The position numbers and the translations under genes are program-made. DNA of 64,000 bases from Loxodes magnus. Its lineage: Eukaryota > Ciliophora > Karyorelictea > Loxodida > Loxodidae. Below the pieces are notes generated by a model. The model was given only the letters and a program-made list of their open reading frames with translations. It was not told the origin of the DNA and did no database searches. The stretch is taken from the NCBI GenBank assembly GCA_946699065.1, contig CAMPDV010000207.1, positions 372,001 to 436,000 on the forward strand, written 5' to 3'. Shown here in pieces: positions 4,517 to 60,691 of this stretch; within the stretch, counting starts at the first letter, position 1; each line of letters opens with the position of its first letter.

Positions 4517-5467
4517 TCAAGTTTCTTTTGAAGTAAATGCTATGGACCACACTCCTTTTTTTATTTCGTAAATAAAAAGATTACAAGTATGATTAAACTG
4601 GTATACGAAACTTTATTATTAATAAGGATTTGCTACTAAGCAACTATCATTCCCTTCAAAAATTTTTCCATGTTAATAGCATTTTTCTTTTACTATATCA
4701 AAAATTTAAGTTTCCAAAAATTGATTCCAGTTATTATAAACTAAAATAGATTATTTACTCGGTAATTCAGAAGACATAGTAGTAACCTTTGCTGGCAAAC
4801 ATTCACTCACCTCTTCTCATTGATTGTTTTTTACTTGTAATCTTCTTATTTTATTTTGATATTCTTACTAAGAATTAACTCCTCCAAAAGCATAGACATA
4901 TGGCAGTTTTATATTGGCTCCAAATCCTCATAAATAATTACCGCACTAGAACATATCTTGAATTTAAGTTGTACTTTATCGTTATTTAAGATTAAGCATT
5001 TCACAAGAATTCGTCCTTCACCCACTAAGAAAAAACATTAAATTTTGGTTAAAAGCAATTCCATGTAATCCCCTTTAATATTTCATTTAACTTTCTTCAC
5101 ATTTATTTAAGTTGTAAAAACTTAATCTGCTTAATGAACATCCACCTGAAATTATCAAATTATTTTCATTTAATTGTGATACTCGAGTATAATTTGAACT
5201 AAGAGATTATATTTCTTTTGAGGATTTATCTATTACTTTTTGCTTTATATCATACTCATATAAGATACAGGAATTATAAAGGAAAGTTTTATAAACTTTG
5301 ATATAATCATAGGCAAAGTTTGGACAGATTTCGTACTTTATGTTTCCTAATCCTATTTTTTAGAAACTATAATTTTCATTTTTTTAGTTTTATCTAAGAA
5401 CTTTTCTAAGAAAAACGATCTTAACTATATTTAGTTGTTTACTGGATTTGAAAACCTCTTGATTCAT
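4517..5467 (-). CDS. Kelch-like protein, subfamily F2, intact (316 aa)
   Basis: The ATG at 5465-5467 and the TGA at 4517-4519 are in phase: 951 bp, 316 residues. The protein starts MNQEVFKSSKQLN and has the family block IVFLRKVLRQNQKN, then KIGLGNIKYEICPN. Kelch-type features follow: SGG near residue 130, FGG near 215 and downstream tryptophans (NNQWEEV) at blade spacing, expected to form a beta-propeller used in protein binding. TGA encodes Trp at LSGW, NYLWGFG and NNQWEE; TGG encodes Trp at YNNW and KKGVW. The end KET-stop is shared with 60689-60691. No signal peptide or membrane segment is seen. Function beyond a kelch-like scaffold is unknown. Confidence 0.85.
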
Positions 5468-7880
5468 TTTTATTAATAAAAATTAAGTTTACACAAAACA
5501 TCAAAAAAGCATTGTAATTTTTAATTATATTATTTTATATTTTATTACTTAAAGAAATTAAATACTTTATTAGCTTTTAATTTAAAGAGTATTGTTTCAT
5601 TATTTGTTAATATTATATTTTTTAATCACTTTTATATATTATTAATATCATAAATTTATTAATAAAAATAATCATTTTATCCTTGGTTTAAATTTATTTT
5701 ATTTTTTAACAAATAAATGAAAGAATTTTTAATACCATTAAATGATCTAATAAACAAGAATTATTTAATTTGTAAAACGTCTTTTAAAATAAAAATATGT
5801 ATCATATGATTTGTTTATTTTTATAACTGCTCTTATTTAATAATTGATTTAATCAATATAAATCTATTTTTTAATTTTAATTTTAGTAAGTAATTTTTTA
5901 CCCGAATTTCTGAATATGATAAATTAAATTTATAATTTAGTTTTTTTCTGTAAAAAGACATTTATTTAAAAGGATTTAAATTTAAATTATATAATCGTAG
6001 AAATAAATTAAGCTATAAAATTCAAAAGATAATTACTAAATTTTTGGTTAAATATTAAAAAAGAAATTATTTTTTAAATTAAAATCTTGTTACTTTTTAT
6101 AAGCAAAACTAATAAATTTTCAACTTGAAAATGTATTATATTTTAATAATTATTTGAGTAATTTTAGTATTGATTAAGATAAGAAAAATGGTAATTTTAT
6201 TTATAATAAATTAAATTAAATTTAGTGTAAAGTATTAAATTATTAATTATTATTTAAATTTTAAAACTTCTATATTATCAACTTAATAAATTAATTTATA
6301 TCACTTTTTAATTAAGTTCTAATATAATTAAATAGCATTTTATATATTCTATTTTATATAAAAATAATTAATATATTCTTTTTATAGAGATATAAATATA
6401 TTGTTTTTAAGTATAATAAGATTAAAATATACAATTAAAGTAAACAAAAAATTGCGATTTTAATTATTTTTACTTTTAAATATTCTTAGATTAAAGTAAA
6501 ATAATTAAATTTACAGCTTATAAAAGCTAGGTTTAGGAAATATACGAATGAAATTTATCCAAATATAGCTTAAAATAATATAAATATTGATGTTGTTCAT
6601 ATTAAATCATCTATATCAATTTAAATAATTTTTTCTTTTAATTTTAATAAAAAGAAATTTTAATAATTGTAATTTTTTTATTTTTAAATAAGATGTTATT
6701 TTGTCAGATATTTTAACTTTTAAATTTACTATTTAAAATAAATTATATAATAAATTTTATTTTTACTATTAAAATTACAAGAAAATAAAATTTTAAGATT
6801 TAGTTCCTTTAACTAAAAATCAAAAAATAAAGTATAAGATATATTGATATATACTAAAAATAACTCATTTAATAAAACATTTTATTTGAAACAGAATATT
6901 AACCAAAAATCTTTCGATTTAAAAATTGATATTGCTTGATAAATTTAGAATAAAAATATTTTGCATATATTTTATCTTAAATTATATAAAAATTCATAAA
7001 ATTTCGTTTTGTATTCCTTTTAAGGTTTTTAATTTGAAATTGTTTTTTGCATAGAGAATAAAATATGATATAAATTTACATTCAAGTTATTTATACACAA
7101 TATGCATTTTAACTAGAATTTAAATAATCAATAGTTTAAAATTGTTAAAAAGTAAAGTAGAAAAATTTAAAGGTTGATATATTTGATTAAATCAAATTTA
7201 AATCTATTTAAAAAATAGTTAATATAGCTCTATCTAAATTTTATTTCAACTTATATGAAAATGCAAATATATATTTTATAAAAATTTAATTTCTATTTCA
7301 TTAATTAATTTTATTTTCTTTTAAAATATTACTTTAAATACAAATTTTTATAAAAATCCAATTAATTTTTATCTTTTTAACATCTTAATACATACAATCT
7401 ATCTATATACGAAGAAAAAAAGGAATGCAGTATAAAGCATTTTCTTCATAAATAGCTTGACTCAAGTACTTTAATAGAATTAAAAATAAATTTTTTATAT
7501 TTAATCTTTATTTATATTTAAAATTAACTTATAAATATATAATTATTTTAATTTTTTACTTTTTTTTATTTAAAATTTTCGTAATTAAAAATATTTAAGT
7601 GTTACCTTTTAATTTCAGCTTTAAAATTTTAAGGAATTTCTAAAGTCTTTTTAATTATGAAACAAATGAAAAATTTTGGTAAATTAGAATAAAGAATTAG
7701 TTTTATAAACGAAATATTGTTAATTAAATAATTTTATCATATAATATATTAATACCTTTACAATTGAATCAAATGTTTTAAATTTATAAACATAAGATAA
7801 AAAGAGATTATTTATTTATATTAAAATTAGGTTTAAAATAAATTTTATAATGTCATAATAAAGCATTAAATTAATATCTG
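5468..7880. other. Very AT-rich region without a recognisable gene
   Basis: The first 550 bp belong to duplicated block A. The rest is almost entirely A and T, with no protein-like frame in either strand and no repeat I could tie to the other families. Confidence 0.6.
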
Positions 7881-7882
7881 AG

Positions 7883-7905
7883 GTTCTGAATCTGAATCTG
7901 AATCT
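7883..7905 (+). repeat. Short tandem hexamer, CTGAAT-type, about 3-4 units
   Basis: Consecutive CTGAAT units lie 20-40 bp before the ATG of the gag-like ORF at 7922. This is a simple repeat with no further evidence of function. Confidence 0.6.
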
Positions 7906-7921
7906 TCTATGTAAAAGCAAA

Positions 7922-11284: not shown

Positions 11285-12312
11285 TCATATATTTTTAAAT
11301 TTTAGTTTAGAAAAATTTTATTTTAAGTATATTAATTTTAAGTTTTATAATCCTTTGGTAAAGTTTTCGCTCTTGCTTCTATATTTTATCCATTTTTTGC
11401 TACATATATCATAGTTAAATAAAATGCTATTCTAGTCGAAGTGAAACACGGTATTTCCACATAAAGTTGGTTGTGTAAAACTAATATTTTAAAATGAAAT
11501 TTATTCAGAAATTGTATTTAATTTTTTAGATCAAATATCAATGTATCAAGACTATAATATCCGTTATTATAAATAAGAAATGAATTCATTTTAGGTATGT
11601 AAACAGCTGAAGTTGTGGCTTCTTTGTTCAATTAAATTTTACTTTCTTCTAAGGTATTTTAAGTTTTATCGTATATCTAAATTTTATTAAGTGCTGTAAA
11701 CTTTTGAAACTAAAATCCTCCAAATATATAAAGCCTAGAAGTGGTTTAATCACATCCAAAATAACTAATAGGGATATTTATCTACTTTATTTGTTTAAAA
11801 TTATGGGTTTTCATACTAAAAATTTCGCATTCAAAAATGTCTGTTGATTAATCATTTTTCCAAATTTATCCTGAAATTATAAAAGTAAAATTATGATTAT
11901 CAGAATTAGTTCTATGACATTATCTTTCTTATTACATGCTAAATAATAAAGTTTCTCTATTTTATTAATTAATTTCAAATCTTATTTTTTCTTATTCAGA
12001 AATCCCTGAAATTATTAAAGTACTATTATTAATTTGTTCAACAAAAGAAGATGCTTAAATATTTTAAGTTCTTATCACTTCATTTTGCTAAGTATTTTTA
12101 TAAACATGATAAGTAATTTTAATATCTGTCTTCAATTGTATAGTAGAAATAAGTGAGAAGTTTCTGGAATCTTTTAAATTAGAGCAGAGTTCATATTTGG
12201 TTATTCCTATTCCGAATTTACAAAATTATTAGTGTCCATTAAATTTTTGAGCTTTTCTTAAAAGTTATCTTAGGAATAAAATCTTAATAAATTATTTTTC
12301 TTACTAAGACAT
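11285..12312 (-). pseudogene. Kelch-like family F1, near-complete copy with one late frameshift
   Basis: The ATG at 12310-12312 opens a continuous family frame for about 280 codons: MSQQEN start, FGIGITKYELCSN, SG and FGG kelch positions, SAVYIPKMNSFLIYNNGYY. The phase then changes near 11465, after which the C-terminal block resumes (GNTVFHFDQNS, SKKWIKY) and ends at TGA 11285-11287. It is one of the more divergent F1 copies: the conserved NIW position is Leu, and the upstream CGTGT element is not recognisable. A single indel may be a true mutation or a sequencing error, so activity cannot be excluded. Confidence 0.75.
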
Positions 12313-12999: not shown

Positions 13000-13930
13000 T
13001 TTTTATATTTATAATAAAGATCTAATTATATTATAGTAATTTTAAAATGTTTTATTAATTTGAACTAAGAGAATAAGATTAATCTTTTTGATATTTTAAG
13101 GAAATATTTTTTATAAATTTTACTTAAAAATTTAAAGGTTAATTTAATAGTAGAAGCGAGCATATATCTGCTTGAAAGTTTCTTCACGTTTACAAATACA
13201 CAATTTTTCCTTTTATATTATATGTTTTTCGTTTAAATCACTTCTAAAATAAAATAATTAAGTTCTAAGTTTAAAAATTATTTAAAATTATTTTATGTTT
13301 ATTTCTAAGTATATATGTCATTTTGGAATTTTATTGGCAATATTGCTTAAAACTATTTTGCAGATTTAAATCATTTTAAATATTTCTAATTGTCGCACCC
13401 TATCCTTTAAAAATTTTCTTTTAGCTTTATCATAAATGAATTAAGAATACTGTGATTTGTTTTAATTTCTATTTTCATCAGTTTAGTTTATTTATATTTA
13501 ATAATATTTTAAAATTTTCATTAAAAATTTCCTAAATTGACAGTTTTTCTTTTTACTAAGTTCATATAGTTTCTTAAAATATATATCTTATTTTTAATTT
13601 TCAAGGTTGCTTTAAATCTTGTATTGCTTCTATTTTTTATAGTAGAAGTTGAAATATTTGAGGGCTATCATCTATCCAAATTATGATCAGTTCAAATCTA
13701 TCTGTAATAGTTCGTTACATTAACATTAAGCTATTTTTATAAATTTCCTTAGCATTTATCTCTACATTACATGAATATTAATAAGTGTTTGACATACACC
13801 TTATAATACACTATAAAACATTACTTCTAAACAATATTCCAATTTTGGCATACAAAAGAATCTATATAGATTTCTGAAATTTATCAATTAAGTCTTTGAA
13901 AACTTCTTATAATATTTTTAGATTATTATT
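13000..13930 (-). pseudogene. LINE ORF2 C-terminal fragment
   Basis: Minus-strand reading gives FCMPKLEYCLEVMFYSVL and LQIDLNWSQFGQMIALKYF. These match the segments FTLPKAEYGGDLVPWSIL and YIDLNWLPFKHIMAIKFF of the full LINE at 29.3-32.8 kb. Further on it reads LCICKREETFKQI, the C-terminal zinc-binding motif, which is FCMCGEYETFEHI in the full element (the CxC is kept, the later His and Cys are lost). The Trp in DLNW is TGA. Endonuclease and RT core are missing, typical of 5'-truncated reverse transcription. Frames are largely open but key residues have decayed. Confidence 0.7.
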
Positions 13931-14639
13931 TAAGAGAACCTTTAAAATAAATTTAGAAAAAGAATGATTTAAGTTATAAAATAACTTTTAAAATAAAAAT
14001 ATAAATTTCATTATTTTACTTAATCTTAATTTCTATTCTACATTTAGTAATATAGTTTAATATGTACAAATTTATGCCTTTACCATAAGATTTATATTAA
14101 ATATGTAAACTTATCTCTGTAGTTATGAATATAAGAAAATTAAGTTATAATTTAAATAAACTCTCTTAAGAAATATTCATTTAAGAAGATTAAAATAATA
14201 ATAATTTAGAGTATAGTATCGTATAACTAGCAACGTTTTAACAATAAAATATTATTACTATTATTATTTAATTCTTTAATTTAGTACAAATTTTATTCAA
14301 ATACTTAATTTCATTTTATGGGTTTATTTATAATATTTTAGATAGAAAAAGGTAAGAAGCTTTAATAGTATTTGTATAAGATTTATTTTTATTAAGATAA
14401 TACAAATTATTAATTCTTTTATAATAAATTTTAGTATAGCTAAAGTAATTTTTATTGCTTATGTTCATCATTATTTAATCTTAATAAAATTATATATTTA
14501 TTTTAAAAATAATATCTTTATAAGTTTTATTATAGTTTTGTATTAAATTTATTGATTCATAATAAGACACCTGCTAAAAATGTTTTAGTATAAATCTTCA
14601 ACTTTAATTAAAATATTTCATTTTATTTAAGTTTAAAAA

Positions 14640-14742
14640 TTTAATATTTCCAGTTTTTATAGTTTTCTCTAAGAATTTTCCTAAGAAAAATGATCTTAAA
14701 AATATTTAGCTATTTGCTGGATTTGAAAACCTCTTGATCCAT
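14640..14742 (-). pseudogene. Kelch-like family F2, N-terminal fragment
   Basis: Starting at ATG 14740-14742 the translation MDQEVFKSSKQLN, IIFLRKILRENYKNW matches the F2 start, then similarity stops. Here the Trp codon of KNW is TGG, whereas the copies at 59646 and 63514 have TGA: direct evidence that TGA is read as Trp. Together with its 5' flank (to about 14900) it is an inverted partial match of 63355-63640. Confidence 0.8.
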
Positions 14743-17461: not shown

Positions 17462-18403
17462 ATGTCTTAGTAAGATAACTAAATTATTAAGATTTTATTC
17501 CTAAGAAAACTTTTAAGAAAGTCTCATAAATATAATGGAAACTAAATATTTGGAAAGTTTGGAATAGGAGTGACTAAATATGAACTCTGTTCTAATCTTA
17601 AAGATTCTAGAAACTTCTAATTTATTTCAACTATAAAATAGAATCTAAACACTAAATTTACTTACTAAACTCGTTATAAGAAATTCTAAAATGAAACTAT
17701 AAATGTTTTTACTGATGGCCTGACATAGTATATTGAACAAATTTATAATAATACTATACTAATTTCAGGTGGATTTCAAGAAGAAGAAAGGAGATTTATA
17801 ATTAATAACTTAAATAATAAAAATTTAGAATTTTAAATGTAAGTAGGAAGAAGATTTCATAGAACTAATTTTGATAAATCAGGTTTAATTTTTCTAATAT
17901 CAGGATAGTAATTTAAAAGCAATCAGTAAATAAATTTGTCTGAATGTGAAGTTTTTAATTTGAGAACTAAGAACTTCAATTAAATTAATTCTATAGAAAT
18001 TCCCGTTTGCTATTTTGGATGCGATTAAACTGCTTCTTAGCTTTGTGTGTTTGGAGGGTTTTAATTTAATCCTTCTTAAGCATTTAATTACATTTAGATA
18101 TATAACAAAAATTAAGATATATGATAAAAAAGTTAAATTTAATTAGATAAAATTGCTACTACTTCAGCTATTTATATTCCTAAAACGAATTAATTTCTTA
18201 TCTATAATAATGGATATTACAATCTTGATACCTAATTATTTGATTTTAAAAAGGTTGTTAAATAAAATGAAAAATTTGAAGTGGATAACATTAATTCTAA
18301 TCAACCAGTTTCAAGTAGAAATATTGTGTTTCAATTTGATAGAAATAGTGATTTATTTAGTTATGATCTGAACAGCAAAGGATGGAGACAAGTTAAAGTT
18401 TGA
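17462..18403 (+). CDS. Kelch-like protein, subfamily F1, intact (313 aa)
   Basis: ATG 17462 to TGA 18401-18403 is in phase (942 bp). N-terminal block MSQQDNQIIKILFLRKLLRK, then FGIGVTKYELCSN. Kelch hallmarks are ISGG near residue 105, FGG near 197, and Trp residues after them: NQDIW (encoded by TGA) and SKGW (TGG). The protein ends KGWRQVKV. The pattern fits a beta-propeller of a few divergent kelch blades, a probable protein-interaction scaffold. It is hydrophilic, with no signal peptide or membrane helix. The next F1 copy (18656-19968) faces it tail to tail 250 bp away. A second TGA follows the stop directly. Confidence 0.87.
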
Positions 18404-18655
18404 TGAAAACAAATGAATATAAATATTTAAATTAAATCAAATAAAAAAATATGTAAATAATGATAATTTAATTAATTAAATAAAATAATAATTTTATATT
18501 TATTTTAAGATCTTAATTTAAGTTATAATCTATTAGGAAAAAGTTAAATCCATAGCTAGTTTTGATTAAATTTTATTTTTACTAAAGGATTTAAATTTTA
18601 ATCTATATTTAAAGGTCTAAATGAGAATTAAAATATTAATATAAGTTTTACTTCA

Positions 18656-19968
18656 TCAAGCTTCAACTTGTCTCCATCCTTTGCTGTTTAAATCATAACT
18701 AAATAAATCACTATTTCTATCAAATTGAAAGACAATATATAAGCTTAAAACTGGTTAAGTGTAATTTATATTTTCTACTTTAAATTTTTCAATTAAATTT
18801 ACAATTTTCTTAAAATCAAACATTAAAGTGCCAAGTGTGTAGTAACCATTATTATATATAAAAAATTATCTTTTATCAGATATATAAATAGCTGAAGCAG
18901 TAACTTTTTATCTAATTAATTTCACTTTTTTATCCTAAATTTTTAGTTTTATCCTATATCTAAATTTTATTCAAGACTTAAGAGGGTGAAAATTAAAATC
19001 CTCCAAAGACATAAAGTTTAGAAGCTGTTTAATCACATCCAAAATAGATAAAAGGTTATTTTATAGAATTTATATACTTGAAATTATTATTTTTCAAATT
19101 AAAAACTTTACATCCAGTAAAATTTACTCATTAATCGTTTTTAAATTGCAATCCTCAAATGATAAAAATGAAGCTTGATTTATCAAATCTTATTCTATGA
19201 AATTATCTTCCTTCTTGTATTTAAAATTCCAAAGTTTTATTATTTAAATTATGAATAACAAATCTTCTTTCATCTTCATTATTACTACCTGAAATTAGCA
19301 GAGTTTCATTATAAATTGTTCTATGTGTGAAGGTAGACCATGAGTAGAAACATTTTTAGTTTCATTTTAGACTTTATTATTATATAATATATTTTAAATA
19401 GGGTGGAAAGCCCTTTCCTTCGGATGTTGCTTGGAGGACCAGCAAGGCAACTAAAAAATGAGCGTGGACGGAGAATAAATCGGAGGAAGAGAAACCAATG
19501 ACAAGAGAAAGACGATGTGACAAGCTGAAGAACTCTGAATACCAGGAGGAAATCTTCTTCATCATATGTCGGGGAATTGTACCCGTAATCGCAAATTGCA
19601 TCCTATGCTTTGGAAGGAAAAATTACAGGGAAGTACTGCAAGAAGAGAAAACAAGGACAGAGACATAAATTTTTTTTCGACATCAAATAAAATTAATTTA
19701 AAGAGCTGCACATCAACGAGAATGCTACGTGCTCTATAATCCAATTTATTTATTTATGAACTTAGTAAGTTAATTTGTTGCTTGAATTCTTTTTTATTGT
19801 AGAAATTAGAGAGAAGTTTCTAGAATCTTTAAAATTAGAACAGAGCTCATATTTAGTAACTCCTATTCCAAACTTACCAAATGTTTAATTTCCATTATAT
19901 TTTTAAGCTTTTCTTAGTAATTATCTTAGGAATAAAATCTTAATAAGTTAGTTATCTTACCAATACAT
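18656..19968 (-). pseudogene. Kelch-like family F1 copy interrupted by a SINE-like insertion
   Basis: The start (ATG 19966-19968, MYWQDNQLIK) and the first ~65 codons run to about 19757. The gene resumes at about 19383 with the kelch body and ends GWRQVEA-TGA at 18656-18658. The roughly 370 bp between are a GC-richer SINE-like element absent from every other F1 copy. Without the insertion the halves align end to end with their paralogs. The upstream CGTGT-like element is still present at 20013-20029, 45 nt before the ATG. Confidence 0.82.
19384..19757 (-). mobile_element. SINE-like element inserted in a kelch gene
   Basis: This is about 370 bp of distinctly higher GC than its surroundings. 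On the minus strand it begins with the head hairpin AGAG...CTCT (19702-19735), shared with elements at 43066 and 62631. It contains GGGTACAATTCCCC (19571-19584), a B-box/T-arm-like motif also found twice in the 43-kb element. It ends in an AT-rich tail. The 5' half resembles a tRNA D-arm region. tRNA-derived SINE is my preferred reading; a non-autonomous DNA element remains possible. A clear target-site duplication is not visible because the flanks are low complexity. Confidence 0.6.
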
Positions 19969-21932: not shown

Positions 21933-22875
21933 TCAAGTTTCTTTTGAAGTAAATGCTATGGATCATATTCCTTTTCTATTTCGTAAATAAAAAGATTACA
22001 AGAGTTATTAAACTGATAGACATAACTTTATTATTTATGAGAATTTGCTATTAAACAATTTCCATTTCCTTGAAAACCATTTCCATACAAATAACATTTT
22101 TCCTTTACTATATCAAAAATTTAAGTTTCTAAATTACTATTCCAGTTGTTATAAACTAAAAGAGATTGCTTACTTGGCATATCAGAAGACATTGTAGTAT
22201 TCTTAACAGGTAAAATTTCGCTTATTTCTTCTCATTAGTTGTTTTTTATTTGAAACCTTCTTATTTTATTCAGAAATAATTAAGAGCTAAGTCCTCCAAA
22301 AACTCAGACATAAGGTAATTTTATTTCTGCTCCAAATCCTCATAATTTTTTGCCATCCTATAATATATCTTGAATTTAGATTAAATTTCATCTTTAGTTT
22401 AGATTTACCAGTTCACAAGATCTTGATCTCCATCCACTAAGAAAAAAAATTTAATCTTTATTAAAGGCGACTCCATGCATTTCTCTTTAAAATTTCATTT
22501 AATTCTTTTCATATTTCTTGAGATTGTAAAAGGCTAATCTATTCGATTTTCTTTCTCCAGAAATTATTAAATCATTTTCATTTATCTTTGATACTCGCGT
22601 ATAAATTGATCTAATAGTTTTCACTTCTTTGAGGATTTGTCTACTCGTTATTATTTAATGTCATACTCATATAGAACACAAGAGTTTTTAATAAAAATTC
22701 TATAAGTTTTGATTTAATTATAAGCAAAATTTGGACAGATTTCGTACTTAACATTTCCTAATCCTATTTTTTAAAAACTATAATTTAAATTTTTTTAGTT
22801 TTCTCTAAGCTTTTTTCTTAGAAAAATGATCTTAATTATACTGAGTTATTTAATGGATTTGAAAATATCTTCCAT
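21933..22875 (-). pseudogene. Kelch-like family F2, frameshifted copy
   Basis: Begins MEDIFKSIKQLS (ATG 22873-22875) and follows the family through KIGLGNVKYEICPN. It loses frame near codon 115 and again near the C-terminus. The terminal block is recognisable as GIWSIAFTSKET with TGA 21933-21935. In GIW the Trp is TGA, where 4517 and 60205 copies have TGG. Overall length (943 bp) is not a multiple of three. Confidence 0.8.
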
Positions 22876-25213: not shown

Positions 25214-26149
25214 ATGTATTAGTAAGAAGACTAACTCATTAAGATTTTATTCCTAAGAAAACTTTTAAGAAAAGCTCAAAAATATAATGGAATCTTTATA
25301 TTCAGCAAATTCGGAATAGGAGTTACTAAATATGAACTCTGTTCTAATCTTAAAGAATCTAGAAACTTCTAATTTATTTCTACCATAAAAATGAATTCAA
25401 ACAATAAATTTACTTACTAAATTCGTAATAATAAAGTCTAAAATGAAACTATAAATGCTTTTACTGATGGGTTGACTTAGTGTGTAGAGCAAATTTATAA
25501 TGATACTCTGCTAGTTTCAGGTGGCTTAAAAGAAGAAGAAAGAAGATTTATAATTAATAATTTAAATAATAAAAATTTAGAATTTTAAATGTAAGTAGGA
25601 AGAAGAACTCATAGAACTAATTTTGACAAATCTTGCTTTGCTTTTATTATTTCAGGACAAAATTTTTAAAACAACTAGTGAATATATTTGCTAGAATGTG
25701 AAGTTTTTAATTTGAAAAATAATAATTTCAAGAAAATTAATTCCATAGAAATACCTATATGTTACTTTGGATGTGATTAAACTGCTTGTTATCTTTGCAC
25801 GTTTGGTGGTTTTTCAAACTATTAAGCATTTAATACAATTTAGATATATGACAAAGCTTAAAATATATGAGAAAAAAGTGAAGTTTAATTAGATAAGGTT
25901 GCCACTGCTTCAGCTATTTATATACCTTATAAAAGAGCATTTTTTATATTTAGTAATGGATACTACAATCTTGACTCTTTATTTTTTGATTAAAAAAAAA
26001 TCGTGCATTTAAATGAATAATTTCCAGTATAAAATCTTAATTCCTATAAGCCAGTTTTAAGTAGAAGCACTGCGTTTCAATTCGATACAAATAGTAATTT
26101 ATTCAGCTACGATTTAAATAGCAAAGGGTGGAGAAAAATTGGATCTTGA
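25214..26149 (+). CDS. Kelch-like protein, subfamily F1, intact (311 aa)
   Basis: ATG 25214 to TGA 26147-26149, 936 bp in phase. Start MYQQEDQLIKILFLRKLLRK, then FSKFGIGVTKYELCSN. Kelch features are VSGG near 107, TFGGF near 198, NIWEKSEV near 222 and SKGWRKI at the end. Internal TGA is Trp at NNQW and NIW; TGG is used at KGW. It sits in the loop between the two inverted-repeat arms, its promoter element being part of the left arm. No membrane segment; presumed intracellular beta-propeller scaffold. It is closest to the copy at 17462. Confidence 0.87.
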
Positions 26150-27752: not shown

Positions 27753-28062
27753 TCAAATTTCTCTCGAAAGAAAAGTTTTGAACCACTCTCCTTTTTTTAT
27801 TTCGTAAATAAAAAGATCACAAATTTCATTAAATTGATATACAAAATTTTATTACTATAAAGGATTTGCTGTTAAACAAAAATTATTTCCTTCGAAAATG
27901 TTTTCATGCTAATAACGTTTTTCTTTTACTATATCAAATATTTAAGTTTACAAATCTCGATTTAAATTATTATAAATTAGAATAGATTATTTACTTGGTA
28001 AATCAGATAAATAGTAGAATCTTCAATAAGTAAAGATTCGTTTAATTCTTCTCATCGAATTA
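27753..28062 (-). pseudogene. Kelch-like family F2, C-terminal fragment cut by the inverted repeat
   Basis: Contains the C-terminal third of F2, ending GEWFKTFLSREI-TGA at 27753-27755. Similarity to full copies stops at about 28062, exactly where the right arm begins. The arm therefore replaced or displaced the N-terminal part. Confidence 0.8.
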
Positions 28063-29322: not shown

Positions 29323-32300
29323 ATAGACGTTAGTAAATGTTTTTAAATTGTTTGTTAATCTTGTTTACATCTCATCATTTTTCTTTAATTAGTTCTTCTT
29401 TCTATTCATCTTTACCTTCTTCCTTTTTTGCTCTCTCCATTTCTAGATTCTCAAGTATCCTTGTCATTAGCTTCTTATGAAATATTTCGATCTATAAGTC
29501 TAAATACTCCAATTTAGACCTTGAAAATGAGTTTAGTATTCTTGATCGTATAGTATAAGGCGACTTAAGTCATAATTTCCGATCTTTTCCGATAATCAAT
29601 TCATTATATTAGAATAGTACACACATTTAAAGATATGCTCGAAAGTTTCATACTCTCCACACATACAAAAGGGATTATCAATGGGGTAATGACGATCTTA
29701 AAGATACTTACGGAAATTATAAGTTTAGGTTCTAAGTTTATATATACTGATAATTTCTCGTCTGTACTATTTGTTTAATTTCGTATAAGTAATTTGTGGA
29801 AATTGTTAAAGATTACCAAATTATTCAGTATATACTTTAGCTGTTTTCATCCTCATAAATTTTTTAGTAGCTACTTTGTAGAAATATTGTTGTATTTTTT
29901 CTCTTACATGTTTAGTAAAAGTTTTAAGATTGGTATTATTCTATTAATTCTGCAGATCGATATTATAAAGGTCTGATAATTGCTACACTTAATCGTAGTA
30001 TTGAAATCCTTTTTTCCTTATATTAATGAAAAGAGAGCCTATTGTTGGTCTTGGAAAATCAGTACTTTCTTATTTAATTTTATGGTAGAATCTGAAGAAT
30101 TTTATAGCCATAATGTGCTTAAAGGGTAATCAATTCAGGTCTATATAACATGATTCATTAAATGTTGAAATTGCTATTTAAAAAGCTTTTCTTGAAATTA
30201 ATCTCATGCTTGATTCTATTCTGTTCAGAACTCCAGTTACTCCTTTTAGAATACTTCATGGTACTAAGTCTCCTCCATATTCTGCTTTAGGTAATGTAAA
30301 AAGTCTACATAAAGCTTTAAAATGTCAAGGAGTTACATTCATATATCTCATCAGTTAAAAAACAGCTTTCTTCATTGCAGCTATATATTTAAATTCAACT
30401 TCTTTGCAATGGGGATTTAAGTTCTTCTTCTAATGTAGAATAACTCCTAAATATGTTACTTGTTCTTTTTAAGTAATTGGTTAATTTCCTAATTATAAAT
30501 TTAAAATTTATTATTTCTGATTCTTCTTTAGAAATTAGATGCATTCGGATTTGGTAACATTAATCTTTAAATGTGTTCATGCAAAAACTTTATTTGATTC
30601 ATTTATTAAATTCTACATCTACTTTGCAGATTTGGAAAGAAGAATAAGATCATCTGCCCATCCTCTACAAGCGAAGCTAATACTTGAATCCTGGCATTTA
30701 AATCCCAATTAGTTACTTTTACTTTCCAGATATCTAATTACTATGTCATAATACAATAATGCTAAAACTGGTCCATGAGAACTTCCTTACATAACTCCAT
30801 TGTTGAATTATAAAGTTCTGGTGCTCTTTCCATCTATGATAAATGAAGAATTTAGGTTTTTATAAAACGATTCTAATGCTATTATTATTCCAAGTGGTAG
30901 TTTAACTCTCTTAAGTTAATCAAACAAGAGTCTTCTTTCTATTGAGTCAAACATTTTTTCAACGTCTATCAGTGTTGCTATCAATTTAGTCTTACCTTTA
31001 GCACATTTCCGATAGTTATCAATTATTTGTTATATTATTCAAATTTATTAAGTTGTTTATCTGTTTTTCATAAATCCCATTTATGAAGGGTGAATCAAAT
31101 TTCTCTAATAAATTAGATTGTATATTCTTTTTGTTAAAGCTTTATCATATAGTTTTAGAATAGTATTAATAAGAGAAATAGGTAGTCAGTTTTTCCAATC
31201 ATCTTTATTTCCTTTTTTAAATATTGGAATTATCACCGATATATTTAATTCCTAAGGGATTCTTCCAAGTCTTAGCATATTATTCAGAAAAGAATGAAGA
31301 ATTATTAATAAATATTATCCACCATATTTCAGAAGTTCGCCTTTTATTCCATCTGGACCAGCTGCTTTTCCATTCGGAATTTCTTTTATAATTTCTTATA
31401 TTTCTTTTATGGTAAAAATATCAAATCCTTACAAATACGAGAGTGGATAATCTTTAATTTCTTAAATATTATCGTATATTTTATCTATTTTTTAATTACT
31501 AAGATTTATCTATTCTTGAGTTAGATTAGAATGCTTGCTAAAAACACAATTTTCCCATGATTCAATGAATTTATTTTTGATTTCTTAATTAAAGTTCATA
31601 GTATTTCTCTTCAAAGGATTTAAAATTTTCTTAGCTTGTGAAAAAATTTCCTTAGAATCTCCATTAAGAAGTAGAAATTTCTTTTTTGCTTTGTTTTTTT
31701 TTAATTTTCATAGATTATACTTGAAGTCTTTCCAAAGTCGTTTTGCTTCCTCATGAAGATTAGTTACTTACTAGTTTATTCTTCCAAATTTTACGTGAGC
31801 TTCCTTATATTCTGAGTTAGCTCTTTTTGCCTCTATATATTTCTTTGTGAGAGCTCGAGGAAGTTTGTTATAATTTGAGTCTGGAATAAACGAACCTAAT
31901 GTTTGATCAGCATTGTCTTAAATATTACTTTTGATACATTCATATTAATCTTCAAGATTATCTTAATCTATTTAAAAGAATTCTAGATAAGTTTGTAGGA
32001 AAGATTCTTAATATTTTTGCCTATCTATTGCATCTTATAATCTATTTATTTTATATTTTCTCTGAGTTATCTTTTCACAATATACTATAGAATTATTGAT
32101 AAAGTCGACAGTGATTGGAATATGATCAGAAAATAAACTATTATTATGAGCAGTGAAATTTGCAAACTAATTAACGTTCAAATGGTTGTTTATAATGATA
32201 TAATCATTACAATACGTTTTTCCTGTTCCTTTGTGAATACATGTATTAATGTTGCTATCATTCACTATCTCAAGATCGTTTTATAGTAAGAATTCTTATA

Positions 32301-32763
32301 GTCTAATGTTATTATCATAAGCATTTTCAGGATTATCACCGAAATCTTATAAAAGAGCATTGAAATCTCCCATTAGTATATGTGGATTATCATTATATAA
32401 ATTCAGCAATGTATTTAGTTGTTCATAAGCTAAATCTTTAAAATCTTAACTTTTTCCATTATCAGGCATGTAACAGGACATGATTAAAATATTATCCAGT
32501 TTAATTTTTATGAATCTATTTATTTCTTTTTCAACTTATATATGTATTTCTGTGCTATTAAATTCTTCTCCTACAATTAAGCATACACCTCCTCCTTTTC
32601 CTGAGTTCTTAAAATATGTTTTAAATCCATTTATCAATATTGGAGGAAAGTCATCTTTTTATCAGGTTTCGTTTATTGATAAAATATCTATACTGTTATC
32701 TCTGATAAATTCTTCAATATTCAAGCACTTGCTCGCTATTCCATTAATATTTATATGTCCCAT
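29317..32763 (-). CDS. LINE ORF2: APE endonuclease + reverse transcriptase, 1148 aa
   Basis: ATG 32761-32763 to TGA 29317-29319, exactly 1149 codons without a frameshift. Residues 1-230 are an apurinic-endonuclease-like domain: NING, the catalytic-Glu motif NETW, GGGVCL, YMPDNG, GDFNA, and SDHIPI at the end. The RT follows from about residue 450: NGKAAGPDGIKGELLKYGG, the region PISLINTILKLYDKAL, SSHGPVLALLYYDIV and the catalytic WADDLILL. The C-terminus has DLNWLPFKH and the zinc-like FCMCGEYETFEHIFKC. Around ten internal TGA codons fall at Trp positions, including DLNW and FAWTHLKIN. It nicks DNA and copies its own RNA at the target. Upstream in-frame residues INLKIK suggest initiation could lie slightly earlier. 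Confidence 0.92.
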
Positions 32764-38149: not shown

Positions 38150-39300
38150 ATATTTGAACAGCAGTAGCTACCAAATACAGAGTAGCTATTTAAAAAGCTA
38201 CTGCAATACTTTCTAAATATGGATTAGTATCCCCTCTCAGCTTCAAAACTCTTTGTAGAACTTTTATTTTGCCTAAAGTTGAATATGGAAGTGATATTAA
38301 TTCCGTGAGTTACTATTTCTGGAATTAAAGGAATAAAAAACAAGATAACAAAATCGTAAAGACTTATCTCAATATAGGTTTTAGATCTTAAGAATTCACA
38401 TTCAATGAGTCATGCTTTATTGACCTAAACTGGCTTCCTTTTATACATATAGCAACTAAAAATTTAATGTACTTTTATTAAAAATTAATGTAATATAGCA
38501 TAGAAAATTCTAACTCAGATACTGCTTTTTTATTAAAAAAATGCACTAAATTTAATTTACCATACTAGAAACATATAAAGAAATGTATCGATTTGTATAA
38601 TTTTGACATGTCACATGTTTAGAGTAAGATGGATTTTTATAAACTCACAGAATAAAAAATAAAGCATAAATTGTTAATGGAATTCTCTCTAGGAATACAC
38701 TTATGCCAACAGCGAAAAGAATTATAGACTAAATAGAAAATAATTAAAGTGTATTTCCTGAAATTACTTATACTAAATATAATAAACACTATATTAGAGA
38801 GACTATTTCTATCTATAAACTGAGGACTTTTTCTTATAATTCTCAATAAGAACTTAGTAATCACCACATTAACGTTAGATATAGCGTTATTTGCTTATGA
38901 GGCTAAGACTTTGATGAAACTTATCATATTTTTGATTGCTAATACTATGCAGACATTATTGAGAAGCTTGAAAGTCATAAAGCTTCTAAAGAAAAAGACA
39001 AGAAGAAATTAATTCTTTATGACTAAAACTATATAAACAACATTTTTCAAAAAACCAAATTCCTAGAATAGACAAATTAATCAAAAATTATCATTCTAAA
39101 TTACTAAAAAAGCGTATTGAAATGTTTAAAATACAAGATGAGCTTTTAGAAGAGTTTCCAGAAGAAAAAAAGACAAATTTCATCAATACAATACAATAAA
39201 TAAAAATATATGATAGAGAAAGAACAACAAGAAACTTGATTGACATTTACAAATTTTTATCTTTCAACATATTTGTAATATTTATAGTCTAAGCTATATT
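38150..39300 (+). pseudogene. LINE ORF2 C-terminal fragment
   Basis: LSFKTLCRTFILPKVEYGSD and NESCFIDLNWLPFIHIATKN align with the full LINE (LPKAEYGGD, ESCYIDLNWLPFKHI). After a frameshift near 38690: FPEITYTKYNKHYIRETISI, then the zinc-like ICLWGQDFDETYHIFDC (second Cys replaced by Trp) and LILYDQNYIN. DLNW here uses TGG, while the full element uses TGA. Endonuclease and RT core are absent. The element belongs to the same family but is clearly diverged from 29.3-32.8 kb. Confidence 0.78.
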
Positions 39301-41310: not shown

Positions 41311-41320
41311 TTTTACTTCA

Positions 41321-42259
41321 TCAAGCTTCAACTTTTCTCCATCCTTTTTTGTTCAAATCATAACTAAATAAATCACTATTCCTATCAAATTGAAAGACAA
41401 TATTTCTACTTAAAACTGGTTGATTAGAATTAATGTTGTCCACTTCAAATTTTTCATTTTATTTAACGATCTTTTTAAAATCAAATAATTGGGTATCAAG
41501 ATTGTAATATCCATTATTATAGATAAGAAATGATTTCATTTTAGATATATATATAGCTGAAGTAGTGGCTATCTTATCTAATTAAACTTCGCTTTTTTAT
41601 CATATATTCAAAGTTTCATCATATATCTAAATTGTATTAAATGCTTAAGAGGGATCAAGTTAAAAACCTCCAAACACATGAAGCTAAGAAGCAGTTTAAT
41701 CACATCCAAATCAGAAAACAGGTATTTCTATAGAATTTATTTACTTAAAGTTATTAGTTCTCAAATCGAAAATTTCACATCCAGAAAAATTTATTTACCG
41801 ATCGTTTTTATCTTTTTATCCTGAAATTATAAAAATTAAGCTTTTTTTATCAAAATTCGTTCTATGATATCTCCTGCCTTCGTGCATTTTAAATTTAAGA
41901 GTTTTATTATTTAAATTATGAATCATAAATTTTCTTTCATCTTTTTTATTACCACCTGAAATAAGCAGAGTTTCATTGTAAATTTATTCGACACATGAGT
42001 TCAGATTATCAATAATAATATTTGTATATTCACTTATAAATTTATTTTTATGAACTTAATAAGTAAATTTTCTTGGGGCTTAATTTAAAGTAGAGATAAG
42101 TGAGAAACTTCTAGAATTTTTAAGATTAGAACAGAGTTCATACTTAGTCACTCCTATTCCAAATTTGCTGAATATATGGATTCCATCTTATTTTTGAGAT
42201 TTTCTTAAAAGTTTTCTTAGGAATAAAATCTTAATAAGTTAGTTTTCTTACTGAGACAT
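41321..42259 (-). CDS. Kelch-like protein, subfamily F1, intact (312 aa)
   Basis: ATG 42257-42259 to TGA 41321-41323, 939 bp in phase. Start MSQQENQLIKILFLRKL, then FSKFGIGVTKYELCSN. Kelch hallmarks are ISGG near 105, FGG near 198, LNIW near 222 (TGA) and KGWRKVEA at the end (TGG). The blocks between (YFGCDQTAS class, SAIYISKMKSFLIYNNGYY) are highly conserved with 17462. A further TGA follows the stop immediately. Upstream lies the best-preserved CGTGT pair (42304-42319). No sign of decay; probably active. Confidence 0.88.
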
Positions 42260-46323: not shown

Positions 46324-47258
46324 ATGTCTCAGTAAGAAAACTAACTTATTAAGATTTTATTCCTAAGAAAACTATTAAGAAAACCTCAAAAATTAGATGG
46401 AATCTATATTTTCAGCAAATTTGGAATAGGAGTGACTAAATATGAACTCTGTTCTAATTTTAAAGACTCCAGAAATTTCTTAATTATTTCCACCATTTAA
46501 AAGAATTCTTAAATAATAACTTTTAATTAGGAATAATGAATTCAAAAATGAAATTATAAATGTTTCTACTGATAGTCTGTCTTCATATGTTGAACAAATT
46601 TATAATGAAACTCTACTAATTTCAGGCGGTAATAAAGAAGATTAAAAAAGATTTGTGATTCATAATCTAAATAAAAAAACCTTAGAACTTTAAATGCAAG
46701 AATAAAGAAAGCTTCATAGAACAAATTTTGATAGATATGACCTTATTTTTATAATTTCAGGATAATAAATTAAAAACAGTAAGTGTAAAAATTTGTAGGA
46801 ATGTGAAGTTTTTAATTTGAGAAATAATGATTTCAAGTATATAAATTCTATAGAAGAACCTCCTTAATGATTTAGATGTGACTAAATTGCTTCTAATCTT
46901 TGTGCCTTTGGAGGATTTTAATCTTTACTCTCTTAAGCATTTAATATAATTTAAATATATGACAAAACTTAAAATACTTGAGGAAAAAGCGAGTTTAATT
47001 AGATAGAAAGCTACAACTTCAGCTGTTTATATATCAAAAATAAGAACATTTCTAATCTATAATAATGGATACTACAGTCTTGATACGTAATTGTTTGATT
47101 TTAAAGAGATCGTTAAATTAAATTAATAATTTCCAGTAAAAAATCTTAATTTTACTAAACCAATTTTAAGTAGAAATACTGTATTTCAATTTGATATTAA
47201 AAGTAATTTGTTTAGCTACAATCTGAACAGTAAAGGATGAAGACAAGTTGAAGCTTGA
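46324..47258 (+). pseudogene. Kelch-like family F1, frameshifted copy
   Basis: ATG 46324, MSQQENQLIKILFLRK; family blocks through ISGG and FGG. The segment near 46985-47010 has lost bases relative to 25214 and 51922 copies, so the frame breaks. The end is recognisable as KGWRQVEA-TGA (47256-47258), length 935 bp. In the terminal KGW the Trp is TGA; all other terminal KGW blocks use TGG. A retained promoter element suggests recent loss. Confidence 0.8.
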
Positions 47259-51921: not shown

Positions 51922-52856
51922 ATGTCTTAGTAAGAAAAATAACTTATTAAGATTTTATTTCTAAGATAACTTTTAAAGAAAGCTCAAAAATTTAATGGAA
52001 ACTATTAATTTGATAAATTCGGAATAGGAATAACCAAATATGAACTCTGCTCTAATTTTAAAGATTCCAGAAGCTTCACACTTATTTCTACTATACAATA
52101 GAATTCAAACAATAAAATTACTTACTAAACTAGGTATAATAATTTCTAAAATGAAACTATAAGTGTTTCTACTGATAACTTATCTTCATACATAGAATAA
52201 ATTTATAATAATACTCTACTAATTTCAGGTGGTAATAAAGAAGATGAAAGAAGATTTATTATTCATAATTTAAATAATAAAACTTTAGAATTTTAAATGC
52301 AAGAAGGAAGATAATTTCATAGAACTAATTTTGATAAATAGAATTTCATTTTATAATTTCAGGATAACAATTTAAAAACAATCAGCGAATAAATTTGTAG
52401 GAATGTGAAATTTTTAATTTGAGAAATAATAATTTTAAGTAAATAAATTATATAGAAATATCTGTTTGCTTATTTGGATGTGATTAAACTACTTCTTAAA
52501 TTTATGTATTTGGTGGATTTTAGCTCTCTTAAGCGTTTAATACAATTTAGATATATGACAAAAATAAAAATACTTTAGAAAAAAGTTTAGTATAATTAGA
52601 TAAGAAAGCCACTGCTTCAGCTATTTATATACCTAAAATGATGTAATTTCTAATCTATAATAATGGATGCTACAGACTTGATACATAATTATTTGATTTT
52701 AAAAAGATCGTTAATTTTAACGAATAATTTCCAGTATAAAGCATTAATTCTTGTCGACCAGTTTTAAGTAGAAATACTGTCTTTCAATTTGATAGAAAAG
52801 GTGACTTATTTAGCTATGATTTGAACAAAAAAGGACGGAGAAAAGTTGAAGTTTGA
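51922..52856 (+). pseudogene. Kelch-like family F1, frameshifted copy
   Basis: ATG 51922, MSQQEKQLIKILFLR; ISGG and FGG blocks are present, and it ends KGRRKVEV-TGA (52854-52856). The terminal Trp is Arg (CGG from TGG). Length 935 bp is not a multiple of three; frame breaks occur near 52505-52600. Its upstream CGTGT pair is no longer recognisable (CATGC...), consistent with decay of both promoter and gene. Confidence 0.8.
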
Positions 52857-54489: not shown

Positions 54490-55130
54490 GTTTGTAATTA
54501 ACTTATTATCTTAAATTTTACAGCATTTATTACATATTACAAAATAAATATCTTGGGAATTTTCTTTTTAAATAAATTTGTAAATAGTATTAGGTTTATA
54601 TTATATACATGAGAAAAATTCATCCATAGAGATTTGAAGAGTAGCTATATTTTATTAATATTTAGATTGTGATCTAAGATTACTGATTTTGTTATCGAGA
54701 ATAAGAACTGAATTCAAGAATATAGAATCAAAGAAATAATTTTAAATATCATTTGAATGGCTCCTGAATATAGAGTTAAAGACCAAAATAATGCAAATAA
54801 TCTGACATATTTGCTTTAAGTGTTTTATTTTGGGAGTGGCAGCTTGATAAGTGTCATTCCAAGAAGTAGAGGATTAGTTCACAAAAGACGGTGAGCTAAG
54901 AATAGACAAAGAAAATTCTAGAGGATTGTGGATTATCCTCAAAACTATAAGTAAATAATATAGGAATTCTGGCTATAAATTCCAGTTGAAAGGATAAATC
55001 TGTTAGCTATATAAAGATTTTATAAAGCAGCTTATAGAAATAATAAATTAAATAAAAAAAGGTTGCACCAACTATTGAAAACACCAATTCCTAAATGGAT
55101 AACTTAAATTTTCAAAAAGAAGAAAATAAA
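54490..55130 (+). pseudogene. Protein kinase C-lobe relic, second copy
   Basis: IHRDLKSSYILL with KITDFVI (DFG degenerate) and WMAPEYRVKDQNNANN (WMAPE complete, W encoded TGA), ending TPIPKWIT. It shares the block A context with 1200-1860 and has different lesions, so the two copies decayed separately after duplication. Confidence 0.7.
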
Positions 55131-58510: not shown

Positions 58511-58515
58511 TAATT

Positions 58516-59646
58516 TCAATTTATTATAAATTTTTTAATCAAATTTCTTCTGACGTAAAAATTTTGAATCTAAAGAGTGTTTAAATTTAGTTCAATTATA
58601 ATAAGAAAAATTAATTCTTAATTAAAGGTAAAATTTAAGCTGAAATAAATATTTAATAGTAATAATTTTAAATTCAATTTAAATTCAATTAATTTTTTAT
58701 TCCCCATTTAAGGTGAATGTTTGAACCACACTCCTTTTTTTATTTCGTAAATAAAAAGATTACAAATATGATTAAACTGATATACGAAACTTTATTACTA
58801 ATAAGGATTTGCTACTAAGCAATAATCATTTCCTTCAAAAATTTTTCCATGCTTATAACATTTTTCTTTTACTATATCAAAAATTTAAGTTTCTAAAAAT
58901 TTATTCCAGTTATTATAAACTAAAATAGATTGCTTGTTTGGTAAATCAGAAGTCATAGTAGTAGCATTTGCAGGCAAAAATTCACTCACCTTTTCTCATC
59001 TATTGTTTTTTACTTGTAATTTTCTTATTTTATTTTGATATTTTTCTTAAGAATTAACTCCTCCAAAAACATAGACATAAGGCGGTTTTATATTAGCTCC
59101 AAATCCTCATAAATAATTATCACACTGGAACATATCTTGAATTTAAGTTACACTTTATCGTTATTTAAGATTAAGAACTTCACAAGAATTTGTCCTTAAG
59201 CCACTAAGGAAAAACATTTAATTTTAGTCAAAAGCAACTCCATGTAGTCCCCTTTCAAATTTCATTTAACTTTCTTCACAATTCTATAAGTTATAAAAGG
59301 TCAGCCTTTATGATTACTCTCCACCAGAAATTATCAAGTTATTTTCATTTAATTGTGATACTCGTGTAAAATTATAACTAAGAGATTATATTTCTTTTGA
59401 GGATTTATCTATTAATTTTTGCTTTATATCATACTCATATAAGATACAGGAATTATAAAGGAAAGTTTTATAAACCTTGATATGATCGTAGGCAAAGTTT
59501 GGACAGATTTCGTATTTTATGTTTCCTAATCCTATTTTTTAGAAACTATAATTTCAATTTTTTTAGTTTTATCTAAGAATTTTTCTAAGAAAAACGATCC
59601 TAACTACATTTAGTTATTTACTGGATTTGAAAACCTCTTGATCCAT
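58516..59646 (-). CDS. Kelch-like protein, subfamily F2, with extended C-terminus (376 aa)
   Basis: ATG 59644-59646 (MDQEVFKSSKQLN) to TGA 58516-58518, 1131 bp in phase. The kelch body follows 4517-5467 closely: KIGLGNIKYEICPN, SGG, FGG, NNRWEKV. Trp is TGA at QKNW, YLWGFG and NNRW, and TGG at YNNW and GVW. After GVWFKHSP the usual ending is changed and the shared stop is out of phase. Translation would run about 60 residues into low-complexity sequence. Either a lengthened protein or an early pseudogene. Confidence 0.75.
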
Positions 59647-60204
59647 TTTTATTAATAAAAATTATTTTTAATCAAAATATCAAAAAAGCATTATAATTTT
59701 TTAATTATATTATTGTATAATTTATCATATAAATAAATTAAATACTTTATTAACTTTTAATTTAAATAGTATTGTTTCATTTTTTATTTAATATTATGTT
59801 TTTTAATCATTTTCCTATATTATATTTCAGATAAAGTTATTAATATAATAATTTTTATAATTAGCATCAAATTAATTATTCTCTTTAATAAATAAAATAA
59901 ATTTTTTAATACCATTAAATAAATAAATAATAATGATTTAATTTGTAAAACATCTTTAAAAAATAAAAATATGTATTATATAATTTTTAATTTTATAACT
60001 GCTCTTATTTAATAATAAATTTAATCAATATTAATCTATATTTACATTTTAAAATCTAAATTTAAATAAATTATGCTTTTTTCTAAATTTCTGTAAATAA
60101 TAAATTAAATTTGTAATTTTTTTTCTTTAGAAGAAATTCATATAAAATGATTGAAAAATATAAATTTAAATTTTATCATCGTATAAATAAATTAAACTAT
60201 AAAA

Positions 60205-60691
60205 TTCTTGTGAACTGATAAATCTAAAATAAAGATAAAATTTAATCTAAATTCAAGATATATTATAGGATGGCAAAAAATTATGAGGATTTGGACCAGA
60301 AATAAAATTACCTTATGTCTGAGTTTTTGGAGGACTTAGCTCTTAATTATTTCTGAATAAAATAAGAAGATTTAAAATAAAAAACAACTAATGAGAAGAA
60401 ATAAGCGAAATTTTACCTGCTAAGAATACTACAATGTCTTCTGATATGTCAAGTAAGCAATCTCTTTTAGTTTATAACAACTGGAATAGTAATTTAGAAA
60501 CTTAAATTTTTGATATAGTAAAAGAAAAATGTTATTTGCATGGAAATGGTTTTCAAGGAAATGGAAATTGTCTAATAGCAAATTCTCATAAATAATAAAG
60601 TTATGTCTATCAGTTTAATAACTCTTGTAATCTTTTTATATACGAAAAAAAAGGAATATGGTCCTTAGCATTTACTTCAAAAGAAACTTGA
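60205..60691 (+). pseudogene. Kelch-like family F2, 3' half at a rearrangement junction
   Basis: Open in phase from about 60205 to TGA 60689-60691: LWGFGPEIKLPYVWVFGG, NNQWEEISE, YNNW, KGIWSLAFTSKET. Trp is TGA at LWGFG, YVW and NNQW. The first half of the gene is missing because block A joins inverted block B here. The coding part itself is undamaged, so truncation by the rearrangement appears relatively recent. Confidence 0.82.

What the first reader, a model, noticed from the sequence alone, without database searches (positions are those of the whole stretch)
4517..60691. TGA read as tryptophan: paralogs exchange TGA and TGG at the same residue
Seen: LINE motif DLNW uses TGA at about 30.17 kb and 13.7 kb but TGG at 38.43 kb. 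F2 KNW uses TGG at 14.69 kb but TGA at 59.57 and 63.58 kb. F2 GVW/GIW uses TGG at 4517 and 60205 copies but TGA at 21933. F1 KGW uses TGG in four copies and TGA at 47238. TAA and TAG fill Gln positions throughout. This excludes the Tetrahymena/Paramecium code (TGA stop only).
Basis: partly seen in the sequence, partly recalled or inferred. Interest (0 to 1): 0.8.

Follow-up and report, generated by a model that had tools for sequence, protein, structure and literature searches.

The report
UGA means tryptophan or stop

Summary
The TGA/TGG exchanges are real, and the reading (TGA = Trp, TAA/TAG = Gln) is right, but it is already known. The window lies in a 705.73-Mb assembly, matching the published 706-Mbp macronuclear assembly of the karyorelict ciliate Loxodes magnus, which uses NCBI table 27 (PMC11441545). 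The best proof is outside the window: in one full-length beta-tubulin gene of this genome, 4 of 4 internal TGA stand at Trp of solved beta-tubulin, 16 of 16 TAA/TAG at Gln, and 400 of 422 other residues are identical. Two of the four cited exchanges (KGW, GVW/GIW) lie 6-10 codons before the stop and show TGA only in frame-broken copies, so they look like decay. The exchange count does not beat an off-frame control (p = 0.27); avoidance of TGA/TAA exchange does (p = 0.009). Two tandem arrays of tRNA-Trp(CCA) have, in the four copies read, a 4-bp anticodon stem, the published UGA-reading form; a single fifth gene has 5 bp.

The parts
41318..42259 (-). F1 kelch gene, intact; sense TGA at 41713 and 41602, TGG at 41341, terminal TGATGA at 41323-41318
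   Evidence: (Kelch_6 E 4.2e-07 with TGA=W)
17462..18403 (+). F1 kelch gene, intact; one sense TGA, TGG 6 codons before terminal TGA 18401-18403
   Evidence: dN/dS 0.44 against the 42259 copy
25214..26149 (+). F1 kelch gene, intact; two sense TGA, TGG near the end, terminal TGA 26147-26149
46324..47258 (+). F1 copy with broken frame; holds the KGW TGA at 47238
   Evidence: (pieces in different frames)
51922..52856 (+). F1 copy in two frames; CGG at the KGW column; terminal TGA
18653..19968 (-). F1 copy in three pieces; TGG at KGW; terminal TGATGA
11378..12312 (-). F1 copy in two frames; TGG at KGW; its end was not found by the tail scan
62444..62615 (+). F1 5' fragment
42..175 (-). F1 5' fragment
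4517..5467 (-). F2 kelch gene, intact; sense TGA at 5020, 4930 and 4819, TGG at 4729 and 4549, terminal TGA 4519-4517
   Evidence: Kelch_1 23.8 bits with TGA=W against 13.1-20.6 for nine other readings
34937..35869 (-). F2 distant copy (44% identity), frame open to a TGATAA end; five sense TGA
58723..59646 (-). F2 copy, frame lost near the end
21933..22872 (-). F2 copy in three pieces of different frame; holds the GIW TGA at 21965 and a terminal TGA at 21935-21933
60203..60691 (+). F2 copy lacking its 5' part; TGG at GIW, terminal TGA
63514..63999 (+). F2 copy cut by the window end; TGA at the KNW column
27753..28007 (-). F2 3' fragment; TGG near the terminal TGA
14629..14742 (-). F2 5' fragment with TGG at the KNW column
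29463..32877 (-). LINE-type retrotransposon reading frame (endonuclease + reverse transcriptase) with in-frame TAA, TAG and TGA; DLNW TGA at 30132; the ends given are those of my alignment row
   Evidence: (RVT_1, Exo_endo_phos_2)
38164..38969 (+). LINE fragments, one with TGG at the DLNW column
13147..13881 (-). LINE fragment with TGA at the DLNW column
1201..1830 (+). protein-kinase-like fragment; TGA at 1450, just before the residues MALE
54511..55125 (+). kinase-like paralog; TGA at 54754, just before MAPE, where B-Raf has Trp and the best two PDB hits Tyr

Best explanation
The window is nuclear DNA of the karyorelict ciliate Loxodes magnus (macronuclear assembly) or something nearly identical, which uses NCBI genetic code 27: TAA and TAG are glutamine, TGA is tryptophan inside a gene and the only stop at its end. 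SHOWN HERE: the Trp and Gln meanings (tubulin), TGA at the ends of the genes read, and tRNA-Trp(CCA) genes with a 4-bp anticodon stem. INFERRED FROM THE LITERATURE: the 4-bp-stem tRNA-Trp(CCA) reads UGA, and release factor wins at a UGA close to the poly(A) tail, so the same codon has two meanings by position. TGA/TGG swaps among paralogs are then silent changes wherever the codon is far from the gene end; near the end a TGA would risk stopping translation early, which would explain why intact copies have TGG there.
For: Beta-tubulin L025: 4/4 internal TGA at Trp21, 101, 344, 397 and 16/16 TAA/TAG at Gln of PDB 6u0h_B, 400 of 422 other residues identical. 32 tubulin genes (20 picked for holding TGA): Trp21 column 16 TGA + 16 TGG and nothing else; Trp101 column 11 TGA, 1 TGG, 20 Tyr/Phe; Gln11 column 27 TAA/TAG + 5 CAA. 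Kelch scan of F2: Trp best among 10 readings (9 residues and X) for Kelch_1, Kelch_3, Kelch_4 and Kelch_6. Terminal TGA: 6/6 F1 and 5/6 F2 tails found, 5 alpha- and 3 beta-tubulin ends; none ended in TAA/TAG. Nearest sense TGA 92-100 codons from the row end in intact kelch copies, 47-49 codons before the stop in two beta-tubulins. dN/dS 0.34-0.44 among the three intact F1 copies, 0.33 for F2 4517 against 58723. tRNA-Trp(CCA): the 27-43 pair is A-C in two C67 copies and U-C in two C148 copies, U-A in the C110 gene. Assembly size 705,730,643 against 706 Mbp published; [quoted passage not shown]
Against: The RT profile does not call TGA as Trp: 0.7 bits at 7 sites in the window LINE, and over 15 columns of eight other LINE copies Ile 4.5, Met 3.5 and Phe 3.2 come first; TGG also comes out first as Phe (3 sites) or Tyr (5 columns, Trp 0.1 bits behind), and TAG as His there. 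In the kinase pair Pkinase prefers Tyr (25.2; Trp 22.0), PK_Tyr_Ser-Thr prefers Trp (26.2; Tyr 24.8). In the F2 scan one weak non-kelch model, WD40_CDC20-Fz, scores best with Gly. The TGA/TGG exchange is not above the off-frame rate. Several TGA columns in F1/F2 and in divergent tubulins face Ser, Glu, Cys, Gly, Lys or others, as decay or divergence would give, but I did not explain them one by one. Other copy pairs have dN/dS up to 1.21. TAA occurs 18-23 codons before the beta-tubulin stops. No transcript or protein was available, and the assembly carries no name here.
Confidence: 0.96

Rival explanations
1. Ordinary ciliate code (TAA/TAG = Gln, TGA = stop only): the TGA copies are dead paralogs and TGA marks decay.
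For: Many copies in the window are frame-broken, and the TGA at KGW (47238) and GIW (21965) occur only in such copies. The exchange rate alone fits drift.
Against: The intact F1 copies and F2 4517 carry 1-3 internal TGA each in frames under purifying selection. A full-length beta-tubulin has all four Trp as TGA. TGA avoids TAA in frame.
Confidence: 0.02
2. Condylostoma-type code (table 28): all three codons can be sense or stop.
For: The same sense meanings; in two F1 tails and one F2 tail a TAA follows the terminal TGA directly.
Against: All 19 gene ends with a readable terminal codon (6 F1, 5 F2, 8 tubulin) have TGA, none TAA or TAG; the matching published genome uses table 27.
Confidence: 0.03
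3. Another lineage with the same sense code (Amoebophrya ex Karlodinium veneficum).
For: UAA/UAG = Gln, UGA = Trp and a 4-bp-stem tRNA-Trp are reported there too (PMC12005148 passages).
Confidence: 0.01

Closest known systems
Karyorelict nuclear code, NCBI table 27 (Parduczia sp., Loxodes magnus; PMC4967479, PMC11441545)
   Same: TAA/TAG = Gln, TGA = Trp inside genes and the only stop seen at gene ends; sense TGA away from the stop; [quoted passage not shown] same assembly size.
   Different: No difference found. The kelch families used here are not mentioned in the main text of PMC11441545 ('kelch' 0 occurrences).
Condylostoma magnum code, NCBI table 28 (PMC4967479)
   Same: Same three sense meanings.
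   Different: There UAA and UAG also terminate (sections read); not seen here.
4-bp anticodon-stem tRNA-Trp(CCA) of Blastocrithidia, Condylostoma, Blepharisma, Loxodes and Amoebophrya (PMC13092985 and PMC12005148, passages)
   Same: The 27-43 pair is lost (U-C or A-C) in the four tRNA-Trp copies read from two arrays.
   Different: Here these genes sit in two long tandem arrays, beside one 5-bp gene. One search found no paper holding 'tRNA', 'tandem array' and 'Loxodes'; the paper on Loxodes tRNAs (Swart et al., eLife RP93502) is not held, so arrays may be described there.

Membership tests
Karyorelict nuclear code (table 27) | TAA and TAG encode Gln | tested here: met
   16/16 in beta-tubulin; TAA = Gln by RT profile
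Karyorelict nuclear code (table 27) | internal TGA encodes Trp | tested here: met
   4/4 in beta-tubulin; Trp21 column only TGA or TGG in 32 genes, 20 of them picked for TGA; not shown by the LINE RT
Karyorelict nuclear code (table 27) | TGA is the only stop | tested here: met
   19 of 20 ends read have TGA, none TAA/TAG, 1 lost its frame; a small sample of three gene families
Karyorelict nuclear code (table 27) | sense UGA and UAA depleted in about 20 codons before the stop | tested here: met
   nearest sense TGA 92-100 codons (kelch) and 47-49 codons (beta-tubulin); nearest TAA 31-47 in kelch, 18-20 in beta-tubulin, the latter at the edge
Karyorelict nuclear code (table 27) | short 3' UTR, termination near poly(A) | not testable with these tools
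   no transcripts
Condylostoma code (table 28) | TAA and TAG also terminate | tested here: not met
   0 of 19 readable ends
Ciliate code (table 6) | TGA is only a stop | tested here: not met
Blastocrithidia code (table 31) | TAA/TAG encode Glu | tested here: not met
   Gln in 16/16; RT profile Gln 13.5, Glu -0.5 bits for TAA
UGA-reading tRNA-Trp(CCA) | 4-bp anticodon stem (27-43 unpaired) | tested here: met
   4 of the 5 ARAGORN-called tRNA-Trp read; the fifth has 5 bp
UGA-reading tRNA-Trp(CCA) | no nuclear tRNA-Trp(UCA) to do the job instead | not tested
   the pattern search did not complete
[quoted passage not shown]
   705,730,643 bases; 3403 RVT_1 first-look candidates, 150 scored and matched; LINE with both domains
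Loxodes magnus macronuclear assembly | 18S rRNA of Loxodes | not tested
   no rRNA in the window; not looked for in the assembly

The most novel reading that the evidence does not exclude
Loxodes may set its UGA-to-Trp reading strength by gene dosage: 94 of the 100 listed tRNA-Trp(CCA) pattern matches (of 134) share one sequence and stand on two contigs in tandem arrays (short-stem in the four read), against one normal 5-bp gene seen. The decaying kelch arrays would then be a natural experiment: sense TGA is tolerated far from the gene end, and at the two near-stop Trp sites TGA appears only in copies whose frame is already broken.
Probability: 0.3. Interest if true: 0.5.

Novelty: already known. 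Interest (0 to 1): 0.22.

Why it matters
A code in which one codon means both tryptophan and stop breaks the idea of fixed codon meaning and forces gene finders to use position. It is published for karyorelicts. What this window adds is a set of paralogs in which far-from-stop and near-stop TGA can be compared, and a reminder that counting TGA/TGG swaps among paralogs is weak evidence without an off-frame control.

Tried and rejected
Tried without use: a self-trained codon-model gene finder collapsed to two segments; a smoothed version (which failed only at its last line) listed plausible segments, but the Pfam scan of ten of them gave one more kelch copy and a weak DUF4286 hit below its cut-off; scans of the first 10 kb in three frames found nothing, and nine further frames found only the kinase. 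ARAGORN and Rfam on the window: no tRNA, no RNA family at gathering score. Outside homologs of F1 and F2: none at E <= 1 among 539 and 444 candidates. Related loci by F1 in viral contigs and by the LINE in genome and viral contigs: pattern matches only, none confirmed. A first alignment script timed out. One Pfam call used wrong frames for two of its three proteins and was repeated. The first tubulin table had 7 of 12 alpha-tubulin loci in the wrong orientation; it is replaced. My note says 7/7 F1 tails; one search shows 6 and I use 6/6 (the seventh copy with a 3' part, 11378-12312, was not found by the tail scan). In one search I dropped six chance matches of the short F2 tail motif (7399, 19746, 25914, 26451, 30033, 18891). 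The RT-profile test of TGA did not support Trp and is reported as a result against. The 20 tubulin copies were picked from the 150 rows because TGA is listed in them.

Considered and rejected: dead paralogs under the ordinary ciliate code, Condylostoma code, Amoebophrya (see rivals). A tRNA-Trp(UCA) could not be tested.
Full report
OBSERVATION. The four cited columns were found by codon alignment and by reading gene tails. The two kelch-like families (F1, F2), the LINE and a kinase pair were located with tblastn from queries with X at every TAA, TAG and TGA. With TGA read as Trp, F1 and F2 match Kelch models (Kelch_6 E 4.2e-07 and 3.2e-07 for two F1 copies, Kelch_1 3.1e-05 for F2). Among ten readings of TGA in F2 (W, Y, F, L, C, R, X, Q, G, S; the other residues were not tried), Trp scores best for Kelch_1 (23.8, next 20.6 for Cys), Kelch_6, Kelch_3 and Kelch_4; a weak non-kelch model (WD40_CDC20-Fz) scores best with Gly.

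IS THE EXCHANGE MORE THAN CHANCE? Not by itself. In the correct frame 4 of 28 TGA-bearing columns also hold TGG; in the two wrong frames of the same alignments it is 10 of 131 (p = 0.27). TGA shares a column with TAA in 2 of 28 in frame and 42 of 131 off frame (p = 0.009), so in frame TGA is kept apart from the Gln codon TAA. Two F2 columns are TGA in all 5 copies that cover them. Pairwise dN/dS is 0.44, 0.42 and 0.34 among the three intact F1 copies and 0.33 between F2 4517 and 58723; over all the pairs listed it runs from 0.20 to 1.21.

HOUSEKEEPING TEST. The genome search answered that the window is G000:C207:372001-436000 in a genome of 705,730,643 bases. A tubulin search scored 150 of 258 candidates; to the 12 loci it returned I added 20 copies picked because TGA is listed inside them. 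Beta-tubulin L025 (270-1607) has 4 internal TGA, 12 TAA, 4 TAG and no TGG. With X at all of them, phmmer aligns it to PDB 6u0h_B over 442 residues: TGA faces Trp 4 of 4, TAA/TAG face Gln 16 of 16, and 400 of 422 other residues are identical. A similar beta-tubulin, L021, has TGG where L025 has TGA at Trp21. Over the 32 distinct tubulin genes the Trp21 column is 16 TGA and 16 TGG (all 12 alpha-tubulin loci have TGG); the Trp101 column is 11 TGA, 1 TGG and 20 Tyr or Phe; the Gln11 column is 27 TAA/TAG and 5 CAA. Other TGA in that alignment are scattered, at columns where most genes have other residues.

STOP. TGA also ends genes. All 6 F1 tails found and 5 of 6 F2 tails end in TGA (the sixth, 58758, has lost the frame). 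The five alpha-tubulins printed (of 12; the other seven lie in the other orientation and were not printed) end in TGA right after ...EEGYGEE(G/A)V, and the three beta-tubulins printed also end in TGA. None ends in TAA or TAG. Sense TGA stays far away: the nearest is 92-100 codons from the row end in intact kelch copies and 47-49 before the stop in L025 and L021. The Trp lying 6 codons (F1) or 10 codons (F2) before the stop is TGG in the four intact copies that have it; TGA is seen there only in copies 46324-47258 and 21933-22872, whose frames are broken, while four other damaged or partial copies keep TGG without the frame being whole (11378, 18653, 58723, 27753) and 60203 keeps it too.

tRNA. 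A tRNA-Trp(CCA) half pattern had 134 matches (60 forward, 74 reverse; 23 for the reversed control pattern). Of the 100 listed, 48 lie in one array on C67 and 46 on C148 (my count of its rows); 34 were not listed. Six stretches were read. ARAGORN calls tRNA-Trp(cca) in five. In the two C67 copies 27-43 is A-C and in the two C148 copies U-C, leaving a 4-bp anticodon stem; the C110 gene has U-A and 5 bp (three of the five checked by script). The sixth stretch (C12) is not called as a tRNA. Short-stem tRNA-Trp(CCA) reading UGA is published for Blastocrithidia and Condylostoma, and its presence is reported for Loxodes (passages of PMC13092985, and PMC12005148). A tRNA-Trp(UCA) could not be looked for: the request did not complete.

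IDENTITY AND LITERATURE. [quoted passage not shown] the window LINE has both domains. That paper states that karyorelicts use table 27, with UGA as Trp or stop. The same sense meanings were reported for Parduczia sp. and Condylostoma magnum (PMC4967479 passages and sections 9 and 10). The identity rests on size and content, not on rRNA.

AGAINST. The RT profile does not call TGA as Trp, nor does it call TGG as Trp first. One kinase model prefers Tyr. Beta-tubulins carry TAA 18-23 codons before the stop. There is no transcript or peptide evidence.

Noticed in passing
G000:C67:482323-491201 and C148:157295-167931: Long tandem arrays of tRNA-Trp(CCA): 48 matches mostly 182-195 bp apart on C67 and 45 on one strand about 241 bp apart on C148.
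   Followed up: partly
G000:C103:669738-672972, C158:171420-182004, C78:681122-688206: High-scoring tRNA matches in regular tandem arrays (527, 1752 and 1753 bp apart). The array copies themselves were not typed; the 25 fetched loci given to ARAGORN all hold tRNA-Lys(ttt), some beside tRNA-Ala(tgc).
   Followed up: no
G000:C5131:12904-26349 and C20:2028-7877: LINE reverse-transcriptase matches repeated at exactly 2532 bp, as if a piece of a LINE had been amplified head to tail.
   Followed up: no
window 23999-24814 and 28443-29258: 816-nt inverted repeat, 99% complementary, continued at 96% by 24810-25214/28042-28446, between the LINE 3' side and an F1 gene.
   Followed up: no
window 42-63999: Two scattered kelch-like families in both orientations, more than half of the copies frame-broken or partial; neither has a match in the 5.8-billion-protein set at E <= 1.
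   Followed up: partly
window 1201-1830 and 54511-55125: Kinase-like pair with DFE and DFV where kinases usually have DFG (recalled; DFG also in the aligned PDB chains), so perhaps pseudokinases or decaying genes.
   Followed up: no
L021 and L025: Two similar beta-tubulins of one genome use TGG and TGA at the same Trp21, while all 12 alpha-tubulin loci fetched from C64 and C237 use TGG there.
   Followed up: partly
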